Below, piece by piece: positions 1 through 19,817 of a stretch of 36,737 nt of DNA. Within the stretch, counting starts at the first letter, position 1; each line of letters starts with the position of its first letter. The DNA is from Myxococcaceae bacterium (GTDB taxonomy: Bacteria; Myxococcota; Myxococcia; Myxococcales; Myxococcaceae). The notes beneath the pieces were generated by a model. The model had not been told where the DNA came from and searched no databases. It worked only from the letters and a program-made list of their open reading frames with translations. A program made the translations under genes and the position numbers. Location of the stretch: contig JAIBBR010000041.1 of NCBI GenBank assembly GCA_019694575.1, positions 1 to 36,737 on the forward strand, given 5' to 3'.

Positions 1-124
1 TTTAGAACCCTTCCCCGTGGGGCGGCCCCCACACCCCCGAGTCATTGACGCCCGGCCTCAAATGCTCCCTTCTCACCAACGGCAAAAGATTCAGCGCGGT
101 CGTCCTTGAGGCCTCGGGTCGCGT

Positions 125-189
125 GATTTGGGACTTAGATTTGGGGTTTAGATTTTGGGGTTTGGATAATGTGTGAGTTGGGGTTTAGA
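125..189. repeat. G/T-rich short tandem repeat, telomere-like, with four G-runs
   Basis: Three near-identical 13-14 base units lie head to tail at 125-137, 138-150 and 151-164, each of the form GATTTGGGGTTTA with small changes. A fourth degenerate copy is at 177-189. The G-runs at 130-132, 143-146, 157-160 and 180-183 could form a G-quadruplex on the plus strand, although the last loop is long. The repeat starts 9 bases beyond the stop of the exporter gene. The rest of bases 1-197 shows no gene that I can support. The function is unknown. Confidence 0.6.
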
Positions 190-197
190 CAGTGGCT

Positions 198-1970
198 TTA
201 TGTGTTTTGTTGGGCCCACAGCCGCGCGTAGAGGCCTCCGCGTTTGAGCAGTTGGGCGTGCACCCCGCTTTCGACGATTCGACCTTGGCTCAGCACGTCG
301 ATGCGGTCGGCATTGATGATGCTTGAGAGCCGGTGGGCGATGACCATCACGGTGCGCCCTTGGAGCACGGTTTTGAGCGCCGCTTCGACTTCGCGCTCGC
401 CTTGAGCATCGAGGTTGCTGGTGGCTTCGTCGAGTATCAACACTTGCGCTTCGGCCAACACCGCGCGCGCGAGACAGAGCCGTTGTTTTTGGCCCCCGCT
501 CAAGGTGACGCCGCGCTCGCCGATGGGTGTTTGGTAGCCGTTGGGGAGCTCGGTGATGAAGTCGTGCGCTTGGGCGATGCGCGCGGCACGTTCGAGTTGC
601 AAGTCGGTTGCGTTACGATTGGCTACCCGCAGATTTTCTGCCACCGTCATGTCGAAGAGCATGGGCTCTTGCGTCACCAACGCGAATTGACGACGCAAGC
701 TGTCGAGGCGGGCGTTGCGAATGTCGACTCCGTCGAGCAACACCCTGCCCTCGTACGGCTGCTCGAAACGAAGCATCAGCCGCGCGATGGTGCTTTTGCC
801 TCCACCGCTCTCGCCCACCAAGGCGATGACTTTGCCCACCGGCAAGTCGAACGAGAGCGACTTGAAGACCAGCCGGTCACCATAGCGAAAACGTATGGCT
901 TCGAAGCGCAGCTCGCGACTCAGCGGCTTCAGTTCGGTTTTGCCGGTGGCCACTTCGGGCAGGCCAAGCACCGCGTCGATGCGCTCAAAAGCAGCGGCGG
1001 CGCCAAGCGCGAACTGGCTCACCCGCCCCACGTCTTTCGCCGGTTGGTAGAGCAAAATCAGCGCGCCTAAGAAAGAAACCAGCGCTTCGGGCTCTATCCA
1101 CCGGGTGGCGGCAAAAACGGCGAGCCAGAGGGCAATCGCCGCCGCGCCCATGAATTCAATCGCCGAGGGCACCAACGCCCGGTTCCATTCGGCGCGCACC
1201 AGCGAGTGGCCCAACGCTTGGGCCCGTCGAAAAAAGCGGTCACCTTCGGCCTGTTGCGCGTTGAAGACTTGCAAGGTGCGCATCGCCCCCACGCCTTCTT
1301 GCACTTGCGCGGCGAGAAGCCCCATTGAAGCCTGCGCTTCACGCAGACGCGCCAAGACTTTTTGGGTGAGAAACCAGGCGGGCAAGACGACGAGCAGAAA
1401 GATGAGCGCCGTGCCTAACGCGAGCTGCCACGAGAGCGCCACGCACACCCCGCCCAACACCAGAATGAGGAACCCGTCGCGAAACCACGAGGCCAGCGTG
1501 TAGGTGGCGGCCGTTTCGACGGCGGCCACGTCGGCGGTGAAACGGCTCAGCAAATCGCCAGTTCGCTGTTGCGACATTTGGGTGGGCGAGAGCGTGAGGA
1601 AGTGCGCGAAAAGTTGCCGCCGCACGTCGCCTACCACCCGTTGCCCGTACAAGCCCGCGTAATAAAACTGCCCGAGGTAAGCGATGCCTTTGATGAGGCC
1701 AATGGCGACAATCAACGCGGGCAGCACCCAGCGCCACTGCGCGTTGCTCCACCCCCCGAGCCAGGGTACAGCGTTCGCGAGCCACTGCGTGCCGTCGCGG
1801 CCCCCCGAGAGCACGAAGCGCAGCGCCGGGCCCAACAACCACGCATAGAGACCCGTGGTGAGGCCCAGCACCACCATGCACGCAAAGGCGCGCCCGAGCA
1901 GCCCAAAATGAGGGCGGCCAGTTGCCCATAGACGGGCGGCTCCAAAAAAGCGGGGGCTCGGCGATGGCAC
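198..1970 (-). CDS. ABC exporter, MsbA-like (fused membrane and ATPase domains)
   Basis: This is a 590-residue half-transporter of the type-1 exporter family, expected to work as a homodimer in the inner membrane. Hydrophobic segments near residues 25-50, 80-105, 160-200 and 265-310 make the membrane domain. The ATPase domain has Walker A GESGGGKS at 386-393, the Q-loop VTQEP near 432-436, signature LSGGQ at 490-494, Walker B LILDE at 511-515 and the H-loop histidine at 546. Its place 48 bases from the divergent lpxB suggests lipid A-core flipping, but neighbouring genes are the only evidence for that substrate; other lipid or multidrug exporters look the same. The start is GTG at 1970, with no clear ribosome site. 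The next methionine, residue 31, would cut into the first membrane segment. Confidence 0.9.
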   Translation of the reverse strand: MPSPSPRFFGAARLWATGRPHFGLLGRAFACMVVLGLTTGLYAWLLGPALRFVLSGGRDGTQWLANAVPWLGGWSNAQWRWVLPALIVAIGLIKGIAYLGQFYYAGLYGQRVVGDVRRQLFAHFLTLSPTQMSQQRTGDLLSRFTADVAAVETAATYTLASWFRDGFLILVLGGVCVALSWQLALGTALIFLLVVLPAWFLTQKVLARLREAQASMGLLAAQVQEGVGAMRTLQVFNAQQAEGDRFFRRAQALGHSLVRAEWNRALVPSAIEFMGAAAIALWLAVFAATRWIEPEALVSFLGALILLYQPAKDVGRVSQFALGAAAAFERIDAVLGLPEVATGKTELKPLSRELRFEAIRFRYGDRLVFKSLSFDLPVGKVIALVGESGGGKSTIARLMLRFEQPYEGRVLLDGVDIRNARLDSLRRQFALVTQEPMLFDMTVAENLRVANRNATDLQLERAARIAQAHDFITELPNGYQTPIGERGVTLSGGQKQRLCLARAVLAEAQVLILDEATSNLDAQGEREVEAALKTVLQGRTVMVIAHRLSSIINADRIDVLSQGRIVESGVHAQLLKRGGLYARLWAQQNT

Positions 1971-15220: not shown

Positions 15221-15448
15221 TTACATCTCTTTCAATTTCATGCGCCCATCGTCGGCAAGCTTCACCAAAAACTGACTGCCGCAGTAATTGCACAAAAGCT
15301 CGTCACCGTCGGTGAAGGCCGATTCTACCGGGTTGTTGGCCGTGCATACCGGGCAGTCGAACTCGCGAAACACTTTTCGGCCACTGACCTGGCCTTTGTT
15401 GTCGTCGTCATCGTCGACGGGCATGTTTGACTTGCCACCACCACTCAT
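15221..15448 (-). CDS. small zinc-ribbon protein
   Basis: This 75-residue protein has two CxxC knuckles, CPVC at residues 32-35 and CNYC at 53-56, spaced as in a zinc ribbon. An acidic run of five Asp residues comes near the N-terminus and a short basic C-terminal helix follows. I do not recognise a named family. ATG 15448 is chosen because AGGAG lies seven bases upstream; a longer frame with five more residues exists but lacks a ribosome site. It is the last gene of the esterase/cNMP operon, 11 bases after the previous stop. A nucleic-acid or protein-binding role is possible but not shown. Confidence 0.8.
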   Translation of the reverse strand: MSGGGKSNMPVDDDDDNKGQVSGRKVFREFDCPVCTANNPVESAFTDGDELLCNYCGSQFLVKLADDGRMKLKEM

Positions 15449-15459
15449 GAAGTCGCTCC

Positions 15460-15969
15460 TCACCAGCGCTGAAGAAAGTCAGCCATCGCCTCGAGGGCCG
15501 CCCGCCGCTGGGTGCGCACCCCGTTCAAAAATTTTAACAACGTGCGCTGCGAATCGCCCACGTCGAGCAGCGCCAAGCGGGGTATTTCGACCGCGTCGAC
15601 GTCGACCGCCGCTGCTGCTGAATAGCCGCGCGGGCCGTGACCGTCGAGCACCTCGGCTTCGCCCAGCACGTCACCCCGCCCTGCGACGCCCAATTCAACC
15701 CGCTCGGTGCCCTGTTGCAGAAAAAGCCGCACTTCGCCTTTGAGCACCAGAAACAGGCTGTCGCTGTCGTCATCTCTGGCGAACAGGCTGACCCCTTGCG
15801 GGTAGCGCCGCCCAGTGGCCTGGTGAAGCACCTGCCCGGCCGCGTCGCCCAACGCCAACAGCAGCGGAGCGTCTTTGAGCCAGCTGTCGCTTTTTACCAG
15901 CTCTGACAAATCGGCCCGCTTCAGGTCGACGCGAACGACGCCCGAATTGTCGTGGGCCGAATCGCTCAT
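15460..15969 (-). CDS. cyclic-nucleotide-binding-fold protein
   Basis: This 169-residue protein consists mainly of a CAP-type cNMP-binding domain. Visible marks are a beta-roll start (RRYPQGVSLFARDDD), SLFLVLKGEVRLFLQQG, then GRGDVLGEAEVLDG and GPRGYSAAAAVDV, which corresponds to the phosphate-binding cassette with its conserved Glu and Arg. There is no DNA-binding helix-turn-helix and no membrane segment; the C-terminal part is a short helical tail. It could be a stand-alone sensor or a protein partner, and ligand binding is not proven. The ATG overlaps the esterase stop by four bases, so it is translated with the esterase. Confidence 0.82.
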   Translation of the reverse strand: MSDSAHDNSGVVRVDLKRADLSELVKSDSWLKDAPLLLALGDAAGQVLHQATGRRYPQGVSLFARDDDSDSLFLVLKGEVRLFLQQGTERVELGVAGRGDVLGEAEVLDGHGPRGYSAAAAVDVDAVEIPRLALLDVGDSQRTLLKFLNGVRTQRRAALEAMADFLQRW

Positions 15970-18098
15970 CGCGCTTCGACCTCGGCCGGGCGCACGGTGC
16001 GGTAGGTGGCGTCGATGTGCTCCATCAGCTCTTCGAAGCTGTCGCCATAACGCCGCTCGTCGCCTTGTTTGTAGCCACGGCGGTTGACGTAGAAGCTGCC
16101 TTTTTCGCACTCGCGTTTCCAGCCCGGCTGATCGTCCCAGTCGACGCCGTTGTCGTCGCGCTCTCGGCAATCGACGCCGCCCGTCGCCGCGTTGGTGAAG
16201 CAGCACCGCCCGCTGGGGAAAACCAGAATCATGGGGCGAAACTGCACGTCAACGTCTTGCACGTAAGCGTCGGTAATCAACGAGCTGAACATCATCGACT
16301 GAGAGTCAGAGCCGTAACCATGGCCAATGAAAATCACCGGGTACCTTTTGTCTTTGTTTTCGGGCTCGTCATAGCCAGGCGGCAAGGCAATCGAGTACTC
16401 GCGTTTGCCTCCGAGAATCTTTGAATCAAACCAGGTGGTTTTCTGGCGCTCGCTGGCGCTGCTGCCGCCATAGGGCGTTGGGGGCCGCTCTAAATGGGGC
16501 CAGGTCATCGCTGCCCAATTGAACATCGCGTAAAAGCGGTTGACAGCCTGGGTGGCAGTGCCCACGTGGTCGCCTTCGCCTTCGATGCGCTCTTCATCGG
16601 TCGGCTCGGCTTTGCCAAAAATAATGTTCAGGTCGCGGGGCACATTTTTCCACCGCTTGTTCCACGGAGAAAAGACGCCTGTACGACGGTCAGCCATGCC
16701 GGGTATTTCGGTGAAGTCGCGGTAGCTGCCCGTGGTTTTACCCCCGGCGACTTCGGCGGCCTTGAAAACCATGCGCGCCTGCAAACCAAAGTTGAACAAG
16801 TCACGCAGCCCGCCATCGGTGAAAATGTCGACCCGCTTGAGCGCCTCGGGGTTCTGACGCATTTGTTCGCGCGCGTCATAGGCAAAGAAGGCCTGGCGAC
16901 CCGACGAAAGGTCGTACGTGCCGTTGCCTTCTCCAATGTCTAAAGTACCAGGCACACCATCGAGCCCATCGTCGCGAAAGGGTTCACCCACTTCGCGCTT
17001 CCAATCGTTTTCGGTGCCGAAGGGGTTGGTTTCCATATCGAAGTTGTCATGGTTGAAGTCTTCGACTGTGGCGCGCGCCGTGGTGAGACAACCGCCGTGG
17101 CCGTCTTCATTCGCGTCAGCACAGCCGTCGACGCCCACGTCGTCAAAACGCTCTTGCCCGTTGTTGAGCAGCGGTTCGCCATAGTCACGCCGCCCGTTGC
17201 CGTTGAAGTCGATGGCCAAGCCCGTCGCCACCGGGTTGAAGGTTTCGCGGCACGGGTCAACCTTGCCTGCTGAGCTCAACAGCAGCAGCGGCTCGTCTTC
17301 TCTCGACGCGCGCTTCACCACCCCTTTGCCTTGGCAAAACGCTTGTGCGAACGCCTGCTCTTGCGCCAGCGGCAGCGGCGTCACTTTGTTCTTCGCCACC
17401 GAGCAGAAGTCGACGCGCTCCTTGTTGTCAGCGCAGTAGTAGATGACGGGTTGGCCGTCACAGAAGGTAATCACGTCGTACTTGCCTTGGGGGTTGTATT
17501 CGGCGTTGTAGACGCCCTTCAGCCGAACCGGGTGGCTGCAATAGTCAGCCGGAGGAAACCGGGCTCGCTCTCGGTCGACGCCAGCGGGAGCAAAGGGCGA
17601 CTGCGGGTTCTCAGTGAGAAAATTGCCGAACGCCAACGTCAAGTCGTTGAGCAAGCGAATGTAGTTGTCGCGATCAAAGCTGCCGCCGCTGGTGGTGAAA
17701 ACCCAATTGTTGAAGTCTTCGGCCAGTTGAAACGACACCCGCTGGCCGTGCTGCGCGCAGGCATTCATCACCACTGGGTCATTGAGCGCTTGGGGGTTCT
17801 CGGCCAGCACGCGCTCGATGTCTGCCAGTGGGCAAAAGCCGCCCACCAAAAACTTGTCCAACATGTGCATGAAGAAGGCGCCTTCCAACGGGCCGCCCAT
17901 CGCTCCAATACCGTCGAAGCGCTCCAGGTTGCGAAAACCGAGCGCGTTGGCGCCAATGCCGCCCATCGAGACGCCCGAAATAATGCGGTAGGTGGTGGGA
18001 ATTTTCGCCGTCGGCAAAGGTGTTGGGCTGCCACACCCCGACAGCACCAGCGCCCACACTCCCCAAAACAGCGCACTTTGTCGTACCTGAAAGGTCAT
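15966..18098 (-). CDS. lipoprotein esterase, apparently circularly permuted esterase-D fold
   Basis: A lipoprotein signal (lipobox LSGC, Cys22) begins this 710-residue protein; ATG 18098 fits it, while GTG 18149 would add 17 residues. The nucleophile elbow GVSMGGIGANALGF (Ser44) and the following GIGAMGG lie at the N-terminus, right after the anchor. Two Asp/Gly-rich segments at about 296-335 and 347-396 look calcium-binding. VDIFTDGGLRDLFN (423-436) and GEGDHVG (His511) are candidates for the acid and base of the triad. The C-terminal 155 residues carry the part that normally comes before the elbow: EYSIALPPGYDE, YPVIFIGHGYGSDS, ILVFPSG and SFEELMEHIDATYRTV. That order is a circular permutation of family PF00756, by comparison from memory. 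The substrate is unknown. It heads an operon with the cNMP-fold and zinc-ribbon genes. Confidence 0.8.
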   Translation of the reverse strand: MTFQVRQSALFWGVWALVLSGCGSPTPLPTAKIPTTYRIISGVSMGGIGANALGFRNLERFDGIGAMGGPLEGAFFMHMLDKFLVGGFCPLADIERVLAENPQALNDPVVMNACAQHGQRVSFQLAEDFNNWVFTTSGGSFDRDNYIRLLNDLTLAFGNFLTENPQSPFAPAGVDRERARFPPADYCSHPVRLKGVYNAEYNPQGKYDVITFCDGQPVIYYCADNKERVDFCSVAKNKVTPLPLAQEQAFAQAFCQGKGVVKRASREDEPLLLLSSAGKVDPCRETFNPVATGLAIDFNGNGRRDYGEPLLNNGQERFDDVGVDGCADANEDGHGGCLTTARATVEDFNHDNFDMETNPFGTENDWKREVGEPFRDDGLDGVPGTLDIGEGNGTYDLSSGRQAFFAYDAREQMRQNPEALKRVDIFTDGGLRDLFNFGLQARMVFKAAEVAGGKTTGSYRDFTEIPGMADRRTGVFSPWNKRWKNVPRDLNIIFGKAEPTDEERIEGEGDHVGTATQAVNRFYAMFNWAAMTWPHLERPPTPYGGSSASERQKTTWFDSKILGGKREYSIALPPGYDEPENKDKRYPVIFIGHGYGSDSQSMMFSSLITDAYVQDVDVQFRPMILVFPSGRCCFTNAATGGVDCRERDDNGVDWDDQPGWKRECEKGSFYVNRRGYKQGDERRYGDSFEELMEHIDATYRTVRPAEVEAR

Positions 18099-18177: not shown

Positions 18178-18972
18178 GTGTCGTTGATGACCTGGCAACG
18201 CTGTCACAGTGCAGTACGCGCGCTGCTGCTGCTGAGCGCGCTGGTTTTTCCCGCGGGGGCTGCCGAGCGTTCGGCCTTCGGGCCCGGCGAACAACTGACT
18301 TATGACGTCTCGTACTTGGGCGTCACCGCAGGTTGGGCACAGGTGACGGTGGGCGCGACAATGCAGCAATACGGCGCCGAGGTGTGGCCCATCGTCTGTC
18401 TCGCCAAGACGACCTCGCTCGCCGACATGTACCCGGTGAGAGACCGCTTCATCAGCTTCTGGGAGCCACGCCAGCGCCGCTCAGTGGGCAGCGACTTTTT
18501 TCAAGACGAAAACGGCAAGCGGCGGCGCGAGCGGGTGCGCATCGACGCCACAGAACGCAAAGCTTTCGTCACCCGTCAACGCGAGGGCGCCACCGCCGAA
18601 GTGAGCTACGACCTTAACGACGCCTTCGCCGACGTCGCAGGGGCGATGCTTTATTTGCGCAACGAAACGCTTCAAGAGGGCCATCGTGTACGGGTACCGG
18701 TGTTCACCGGCGACAACACCTTCGTGATGGAAGCAGTGGTGGAAGCGCGGCAAACAATTCGTACCGTGCTGGGCGACCGCGAGGTTTTTCGCCTACGGGT
18801 GAGCAGCGACTTTTCGGGCAAGCTGAAAACCAAGCGCGACATGCAGGTGTACCTCACCGCTGACGCGGCGCAGGTGCCAGTGCGCGTCGAAGCCGACTTC
18901 TTGCTCGGAACTTTGCGGGCCGAGCTTTCGGCATATTCCTCAGGGCGTGACTACACTCAAGGCGGGTTATGA
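18178..18972 (+). CDS. secreted DUF3108-like protein, copy 1
   Basis: This is a 264-residue protein with a cleavable signal peptide (hydrophobic ALLLLSALVFPAG, cleavage near AGA-AE). The mature part is beta-rich: FGPGEQLTYDVSYLGVTAGW near its start, then YPVRDRFISFWEP, LNDAFADVAGAMLYLRN, VPVFTGDN, and YLTADAAQVPVRVEADFLLG near the end. This matches the DUF3108 pattern as I know it, a periplasmic protein of unknown function. The start is GTG 18178; TTG 18184 and ATG 18187 are in frame. It is divergent from the esterase gene and overlaps copy 2 by four bases. Confidence 0.82.
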   Translation: MSLMTWQRCHSAVRALLLLSALVFPAGAAERSAFGPGEQLTYDVSYLGVTAGWAQVTVGATMQQYGAEVWPIVCLAKTTSLADMYPVRDRFISFWEPRQRRSVGSDFFQDENGKRRRERVRIDATERKAFVTRQREGATAEVSYDLNDAFADVAGAMLYLRNETLQEGHRVRVPVFTGDNTFVMEAVVEARQTIRTVLGDREVFRLRVSSDFSGKLKTKRDMQVYLTADAAQVPVRVEADFLLGTLRAELSAYSSGRDYTQGGL

Positions 18973-19817
18973 CCATTCGACAGTTTCGAAGCGCGGCGCT
19001 GGCGTTGTTGTGGTGTGCGGGAGCAGCGACGGCACAGAGCCCCGCCATTCACCCGGTGCCCGACAATAACGCGTGCCTGCCCCTGCCAGCGTTGCAGACG
19101 CCCTGGTCTTTCGGGCCCGGCGAAGTGTTGGAATACGACCTCGACGCCCTGGGCGCCAAAGCTGGCCGCATGACCATGCGTGTTTTGCCGGTGAAGCAGT
19201 CGCAGCTGCCCATTGAAATTCGCGCCGAGACCAACACCTTCTTTTCAAAAGTGCGAAAAGTCAGGGGCACCGGCACCAGCTACCTCAACCCCAAGACGCT
19301 GCGGCCATTGCGGTACTACGAAGACGCTTTAGAAAATGACGTGCACCGCACCGCCGACGTGGCCTTCGCCACCAAAGATCACTCGGTGAAGCTGGCGTTT
19401 ACCGTCAACGCTGACGCCGGCACTTCAGAATTTCGCTACGACGACGACGGGCTCGATGTGGCGGGCACCATTTTCTTGATGCGGCAGCTGCCCTTCAAAG
19501 AAGGCCTGCCCATTTGCTTCGACGCGTACGGCATTCGCCGGTTGTGGCGGGTGTTCGGCAAAGTCGAAGGCAAAGAACACGTGTCATTGCCGGTGGGCGA
19601 ATTCGACGCCTGGCACATTTCGGGCGAGGCAGCGGTCATCGGCAATGAAAACATGCGCCGCGAAATTCACGTGTGGATCTCAGCCGACGCGCGCCGGTTG
19701 CCGCTCGCGGCCATGGGGGTCATCGACCTGGGCGCCGTGCGTGCCACGCTCACCGCGGTAACGCGGCCCGGAGAAGCGAAGTCGCGGGCTGAGCCGAAAC
19801 AGAACTTGAAGTGGTGA
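18969..19817 (+). CDS. secreted DUF3108-like protein, copy 2
   Basis: This is a 282-residue paralogue of the preceding gene. A signal peptide ends near ATA-QS. The core repeats the same order: FGPGEVLEYDLDALGAKAG, then SYLNPKTLRPLRYYEDAL, DGLDVAGTIFLMRQLPF and VWISADARRLPLAAMGVIDL. The similarity to copy 1 is clear in the FGPGE, YD and ISADARRLP-like segments but otherwise low. Four residues from the mature start is a Pro-rich leader absent in copy 1. Its ATG overlaps the previous stop (ATGA), so the two are made together and may form a pair in the periplasm or envelope. No catalytic residues are evident. Confidence 0.82.
   Translation: MTIRQFRSAALALLWCAGAATAQSPAIHPVPDNNACLPLPALQTPWSFGPGEVLEYDLDALGAKAGRMTMRVLPVKQSQLPIEIRAETNTFFSKVRKVRGTGTSYLNPKTLRPLRYYEDALENDVHRTADVAFATKDHSVKLAFTVNADAGTSEFRYDDDGLDVAGTIFLMRQLPFKEGLPICFDAYGIRRLWRVFGKVEGKEHVSLPVGEFDAWHISGEAAVIGNENMRREIHVWISADARRLPLAAMGVIDLGAVRATLTAVTRPGEAKSRAEPKQNLKW

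What the first reader, a model, noticed from the sequence alone, without database searches (positions are those of the whole stretch)
15966..18098. Natural circular permutation of an esterase-D hydrolase, anchored as a lipoprotein
In the esterase-D family (PF00756) the order is: strands with PPGYD and the oxyanion HG motif, a helix with EEL..Y, then the GxSMGG nucleophile elbow, then the acid and His. Here GVSMGG (Ser44) comes first, right after the lipid anchor. The acid/His candidates follow, and the whole pre-elbow half (PPGYDE, FIGHGYGSDS, SFEELMEHIDATYRTV) forms the last 155 residues, ending exactly where the elbow would normally start. One intact frame makes a broken pseudogene unlikely. 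The new termini would lie beside each other in the fold.
Basis: partly seen in the sequence, partly recalled or inferred. Interest (0 to 1): 0.82.

Follow-up and report, generated by a model that had tools for sequence, protein, structure and literature searches.

The report
Circularly permuted lipoprotein esterase with cap
This myxobacterial gene encodes a membrane-anchored ester-cutting enzyme whose two halves have swapped order in the chain yet are predicted to fold into the usual shape, and the rearranged version is shared by many myxobacteria, so it is a real, inherited enzyme family rather than a damaged gene.

Summary
Confirmed. The minus-strand ORF (ATG at 18098, 710 aa) is an intact lipoprotein that starts at the nucleophile elbow (lipid Cys22, GVSMGG with Ser44). 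Its last ~155 residues are the pre-elbow half of a PF00756/CE1 (feruloyl esterase-like) domain. Profile alignment to solved feruloyl esterases runs in rotated order, and the protein's C-terminus and N-terminus meet at the same residue of the target. Rotating 77 family members raises the best single-domain score against canonical myxobacterial esterases from 25.9 to 42.4 bits. Ser44, Asp433 and His511 are invariant in 77/77. The order is conserved across the phylum (59 of 195 Myxococcota genomes). An AlphaFold2 model (pLDDT 95, pTM 0.93) aligns over its whole catalytic core, among the PDB chains compared, only with the P. funiculosum PHB depolymerase, whose type-2 catalytic domain has the same part order; canonical esterases align half by half. 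That precedent makes this a new variant of a known kind: apparently a separate permutation, inside the CE1/esterase-D family. Activity and substrate are untested.

The parts
15966..18098 (-). Gene for the 710-aa permuted, lipid-anchored esterase (stop codon 15966-15968)
   Evidence: homologues
18033..18098 (-). Residues 1-22: lipoprotein signal peptide with lipobox LSGC, Cys22
   Evidence: Cys invariant in alignment A1, lipobox readable in most relatives
17880..17996 (-). Residues 35-73: strand, nucleophile elbow GVSMGG (Ser44) and following helix/strand = canonical second half, first piece
   Evidence: PF00756 positions 115-151 at residues 36-72; model strands and helix 11-46
16815..17879 (-). 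Residues 74-428: private cap insert, acidic, ten Cys, DxNGNGxxDxxEP loops; confident model, no PDB fold match by Foldseek
16464..16814 (-). Residues 429-545: canonical C-terminal part with catalytic acid Asp433 and His511
   Evidence: invariant 77/77; columns align with canonical Asp/Glu (22 of 31) and His (29 of 31)
16446..16463 (-). Residues 546-551: approximate place where the old C- and N-termini are joined (boundary set by alignment, not exact)
   Evidence: inference
15969..16445 (-). Residues 552-710: canonical first half (PPGYDE, HGYG oxyanion loop His593-Gly594, helix before the elbow, YRT)
15460..15969 (-). Downstream gene, cyclic-nucleotide-binding domain protein, ATGA overlap with the esterase stop
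   Evidence: PF00027 E = 5e-15; overlap; conserved neighbour
15221..15463 (-). Small zinc-ribbon-like protein, third gene of the cluster
   Evidence: identification by CxxC motifs is by eye
18178..18972 (+). Divergent neighbour, DUF3108
   Evidence: PF11306; conserved beside the esterase
18969..19817 (+). Second divergent DUF3108 gene
   Evidence: PF11306

Best explanation
The gene encodes an active serine esterase of the PF00756/CE1 (feruloyl-esterase-like) lineage that has been naturally circularly permuted. The old C- and N-termini are joined near residue 550, and new termini were opened just before the strand that leads into the nucleophile elbow. The chain is exported, lipidated at Cys22 and tethered to the cell envelope, with the elbow strand starting about 12 residues after the anchor. 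Ser44, Asp433 and His511 form the triad, and the HGYG loop (593-596), now near the C-terminus, supplies the oxyanion hole. A private 355-residue acidic, probably calcium-stabilised cap inserted after the elbow subdomain covers or shapes the active site and sets the substrate, most likely an ester of a bulky envelope or extracellular polymer or lipid. Shown here: part order, conservation, predicted fold, triad conservation. Inferred: catalysis, calcium, orientation, substrate.
For: PF00756 hit out of order. Profile of 62 members hits feruloyl esterase 7xrt at E = 8.5e-21, with query 472-554, 606-630 and then 4-71 lying at chain 24-104, 119-144, 144-210. The rotated profile gives one alignment through the junction, E = 1.2e-22. 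The rotation test raises best single-domain bits from 25.9 to 42.4 over 77 members; shuffled full-sequence score is -0.8. S44, D433, H511 in 77/77, G594 77/77, H593 70/77. Model pLDDT 95.3, pTM 0.93. VIA-align: 2D81 Z 16.4, rmsd 4.0, 240 residues over model 14..679, while canonical 1jt2 aligns 13..516 with chain 162-284 and 8bf3 aligns 495..683 with chain 115-262. Phylum-wide same order. Conserved neighbourhood.
Against: No activity data. The model is a prediction guided by an alignment of the same permuted family. Whole-model Foldseek hits are weak by E-value (best 1.9e-3), as expected for a permuted protein with a large insert. No intermediate (tandem duplicate) was found to document how the permutation arose.
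Confidence: 0.9

Rival explanations
1. The permutation is not a separate event: this family and the type-2 PHB depolymerases (2D80) descend from one permuted ancestor, and the protein is a diverged PHB-depolymerase-like enzyme.
For: 2D80/2D81 is the only solved structure that aligns in the same order over the whole core (Z 16). NCBIfam type-1 PHA depolymerase model touches 44 of 62 members.
Against: The sequence profile finds canonical CE1 feruloyl esterases at E = 1e-21 but not 2D80 even at E = 10. Identity to 2D80 is 12%.
Confidence: 0.15
2. Two partial domains that do not pair within one chain: the elbow-first half and the HG half each complement a partner in a dimer (domain swap) rather than each other.
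For: Only sequence order is directly observed. A permuted chain and a swapped dimer share the same sequence.
Against: Each chain holds exactly one complete set of parts. The single-chain model is confident and aligns as one core with 2D81.
Confidence: 0.05
3. Catalytically dead, structural or binding lipoprotein with an esterase-like fold.
For: His593 of the HG loop is replaced in 7 of 77 members; no assay.
Against: Ser44, Asp433, His511 and Gly594 are invariant in 77 of 77 across 28-60% identity.
Confidence: 0.05
4. Assembly or recombination artefact, or pseudogene remnant.
For: The window lies in a draft genome of 220 contigs.
Against: Same order and single frame in dozens of independently assembled genomes with invariant catalytic residues.
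Confidence: 0.005

Closest known systems
CE1 / PF00756 feruloyl and acetyl-xylan esterases (BT_4077, PDB 7xrt; XynZ esterase domain 1jjf/1jt2)
   Same: Closest by sequence; PPGYD, HG loop, pre-elbow helix with YRT, GxSMGG elbow, Asp/Glu and His all align when the chain is rotated.
   Different: Canonical order, no cap of this size; this family opens the chain at the elbow and joins the old termini.
Extracellular PHB depolymerases with catalytic domain type 2 (Penicillium funiculosum, PDB 2D80/2D81)
   Same: [quoted passage not shown] the same part order; structure aligns over the whole core.
   Different: No sequence match even at E = 10, 12% identity; at 318 residues it has no room for the 355-residue acidic cap; secreted polymer-degrading enzyme.
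S-formylglutathione hydrolase / esterase D (TIGR02821)
   Same: Same Pfam family; elbow segment aligns.
   Different: Much weaker sequence similarity (E = 0.08 with NCBIfam); canonical order; cytosolic (general knowledge).
Other permuted alpha/beta hydrolases (peripheral strands beta1/beta2, reviewed in PMC11878206)
   Same: Natural change of strand order within the fold.
   Different: There the permutation concerns peripheral strands; here the cut is at the central elbow strand.

Membership tests
PF00756 Esterase / CE1 | Sequence profile match above curated cut-off | tested here: met
   28.1 bits vs cut-off 22; 60 of 62 relatives match at E <= 0.1
PF00756 Esterase / CE1 | Linear order: oxyanion HG half, elbow, acid, His | tested here: not met
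   Order is elbow, acid, His, HG half; so a permuted relative, not a canonical member
PF00756 Esterase / CE1 | Ser-Asp/Glu-His triad and HG oxyanion loop in homologous positions | tested here: met
   Columns align with 31 canonical proteins after rotation: Ser 30, Asp/Glu 22, His 29, Gly594 30; by sequence only, distances not measured
PF00756 Esterase / CE1 | Ester hydrolysis | not testable with these tools
   No assay
PHB depolymerase, catalytic domain type 2 | Oxyanion hole C-terminal to the triad | tested here: met
   Order S44, D433, H511, HG593-594; definition from PMC2666664
PHB depolymerase, catalytic domain type 2 | Sequence relationship to known members | tested here: inconclusive
   2D80 absent from profile hits at E <= 10; structural Z 16 at 12% identity; no type-2 profile was among the matches
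PHB depolymerase, catalytic domain type 2 | Linker and substrate-binding domain, PHB hydrolysis | not tested
   No such domain recognised in the ORF by Pfam; activity not testable here
Bacterial lipoprotein | Signal peptide with lipobox ending in Cys | tested here: met
   LSGC, Cys22; conserved in relatives; lipidation itself not shown

The most novel reading that the evidence does not exclude
An independent natural circular permutation at the nucleophile elbow of a CE1/esterase-D-type hydrolase, fixed early in Myxococcota together with a 355-residue calcium-stabilised cap of a new fold. The permutation lets a lipid anchor sit at the base of the central strand so that the enzyme acts on a specific envelope ester, in a conserved cluster with a cNMP-binding protein and DUF3108 proteins.
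Probability: 0.4. Interest if true: 0.65.

Novelty: new variant of a known kind. Interest (0 to 1): 0.52.

Why it matters
It appears to give a second case of an alpha/beta hydrolase opened at its catalytic elbow, in a family where both orders coexist in the same phylum and often the same genome. That makes it a natural test of how permutation survives in enzymes and of what it gains (here a short membrane tether next to the elbow strand). Automated annotation sees only a fragmentary esterase match and would miss the permutation. The cap is a candidate new fold.

Tried and rejected
A single-sequence scan of GTDB contigs found nothing; the profile scan found 118 relatives. I looked for a canonical-order protein carrying the same cap, which would be the un-permuted ancestor: none among 195 Myxococcota genomes; the three extra weak hits are unrelated proteins sharing only the acidic loop motif, and L147 is a deletion derivative. 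I looked for a vestigial first half in the N-terminal extensions of distant members by eye: they are beta-rich or low-complexity spacers, no HG half. A first canonical profile from only six sequences gave a small rotation gain and was replaced by one of 31. Foldseek and VIA-align gave no match for the cap; sequence search of the cap against PDB gave none. Literature search for a permuted myxobacterial esterase found none. Artefact and pseudogene readings were rejected on conservation.

Full report
OBSERVATION. The minus strand 18098..15966 holds one open frame of 710 codons that occurs once in its genome. It begins with a lipoprotein signal ending LSGC (Cys22), followed by TTYRIISGVSMGG; GVSMG at 42-46 is the only GxSxG in the protein. 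The last ~155 residues contain PPGYDE, IGHGYGSDS and SFEELMEHIDATYRT, and the chain ends ...VRPAEVEAR. The stop overlaps the ATG of the next gene (ATGA).

IS IT A PERMUTED ESTERASE? Pfam reports PF00756 in the protein above its cut-off, with the best stretch (residues 36-72) matching the middle of the profile, 115-151 of 251. A profile built from 62 relatives (A2) searched against PDB sequences hits feruloyl esterase 7xrt at E = 8.5e-21 in three pieces: query 472-554, 606-630 and 4-71 lie on chain residues 24-104, 119-144 and 144-210. The end and the beginning of the protein therefore meet at the same target residue. When the core alignment is rotated (A3) the junction is crossed by one alignment and the E-value becomes 1.2e-22. 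Against a profile of 31 canonical PF00756 proteins from the same phylum, rotating each of 77 members raises the best single-domain score from a mean of 25.9 to 42.4 bits; the full-sequence score of shuffled copies averages -0.8. In the rotated alignment Ser44 falls on Ser in 30 of 31 canonical proteins, Asp433 on Asp/Glu in 22, His511 on His in 29 and Gly594 on Gly in 30.

CONSERVATION. A match is found in 37 of 98 close relatives (most are whole-length in the same order, a few are partial or weak) and in 59 of 195 Myxococcota genomes at E <= 1e-30. A GTDB-wide scan returned 118 relatives, the best 80 of which are from Myxococcota and MAGs labelled Deltaproteobacteria/Proteobacteria. In every complete one inspected the elbow comes first. 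In 77 aligned members Ser44, Asp433, His511 and Gly594 are invariant and His593 is kept in 70. A lipobox cysteine precedes the elbow closely in Myxococcia; distant members place an Asp-rich spacer or a beta-rich domain in between. This rules out an artefact or pseudogene.

STRUCTURE. AlphaFold2 on the mature protein with 62 sequences gives pLDDT 95.3 and pTM 0.93. Model residue n is protein residue n+21. In VIA-align 2 only the P. funiculosum PHB depolymerase aligns across the complete model range (2D81: Z 16.4, rmsd 4.0, 240 residues, 14..679). Canonical esterases align by halves: 1jt2 Z 9.7 (rmsd 2.5, 120 residues) with model 13..516 against chain 162-284, and 8bf3 Z 8.2 (rmsd 4.0, 130 residues) with model 495..683 against chain 115-262. 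That is the pattern expected for a permuted core. Whole-model Foldseek E-values are weak (best 1.9e-3, again 2D80).

THE CAP. Residues 74-428 are inserted between the elbow subdomain and the acid/His part. They hold strongly conserved acidic loops (D297, N299, N301, D305, E308, D320, D324, D376, D380, D387, E390) and ten cysteines. Folded alone the region is confident (pLDDT 94.1), yet Foldseek finds nothing in PDB better than E = 4.6 and VIA-align nothing at Z 2; sequence search finds nothing either. Within 195 genomes the full cap occurs only in the permuted family, which points to one origin of cap plus permutation. Calcium binding is inferred from the loop pattern.

MECHANISM. Most likely an envelope-tethered serine esterase: Ser44 attacks, His511/Asp433 relay, the HGYG loop gives the oxyanion hole, and the cap determines access. 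Because the cut lies at the start of the elbow strand, whose far end carries Ser44, the anchor should sit on the opposite side of the sheet from the active site (inference from the general fold). The substrate is unknown; relatives by sequence are feruloyl/acetyl-xylan esterases, while the part order is that of PHB depolymerases.

NEIGHBOURHOOD. In Myxococcia the gene is followed by a cyclic-nucleotide-binding-domain protein (in most), a small zinc-ribbon-like protein, and convergent YggS-like and Maf genes, and is divergent from one or two DUF3108 genes. This suggests a conserved envelope-related cluster but does not name the function.

COMPARISON. PHA depolymerases with catalytic domain type 2 have the oxyanion hole C-terminal to the triad (PMC2666664), so the part order itself is known. 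A 2024 survey of alpha/beta hydrolases mentions permutation of peripheral strands (PMC11878206). A search for a permuted esterase in myxobacteria gave no paper; only open-access papers are held. The sequence evidence (CE1 at 1e-21, 2D80 absent at E = 10) favours a separate permutation in the CE1 lineage; this is likely, not proven. Hence: new variant of a known kind.

Noticed in passing
L144, L145, L146: The acidic loop motif of the cap (DxNGNGxxDxxEP...GTEGNGxxDxGEPF) also occurs in proteins that look unrelated: an acidic lipoprotein, a neutral-ceramidase-like protein and an LptD-like barrel (identified by eye), so it may be a mobile acidic element of myxobacterial envelope proteins.
   Followed up: partly
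L147 (G187:C109:12500-16000): A deletion derivative in which the cap is joined directly to the final helix (YELVALINERYRT) with neither elbow nor catalytic His; possibly a cap-only binding protein or a remnant.
   Followed up: no
window 18178-19817 and flanks of L031-L059: A DUF3108 pair is divergently transcribed beside the permuted esterase across Myxococcia; a functional link between the two unknowns is plausible.
   Followed up: partly
L083, L070, L094, L081 N-terminal regions: Distant members carry a beta-rich domain (ZU5-like by eye) between the lipobox and the elbow.
   Followed up: no
L074, L092, L101: CNDGIDNDxDGxxD-type cysteine/acidic repeats inserted in the oxyanion half (NCBIfam NF033662 matches 5 of 62 members).
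   Followed up: no
L024/L056 (G065:C62) and L025/L052 (G070:C5): Tandem duplicate copies of the permuted esterase on one contig.
   Followed up: no
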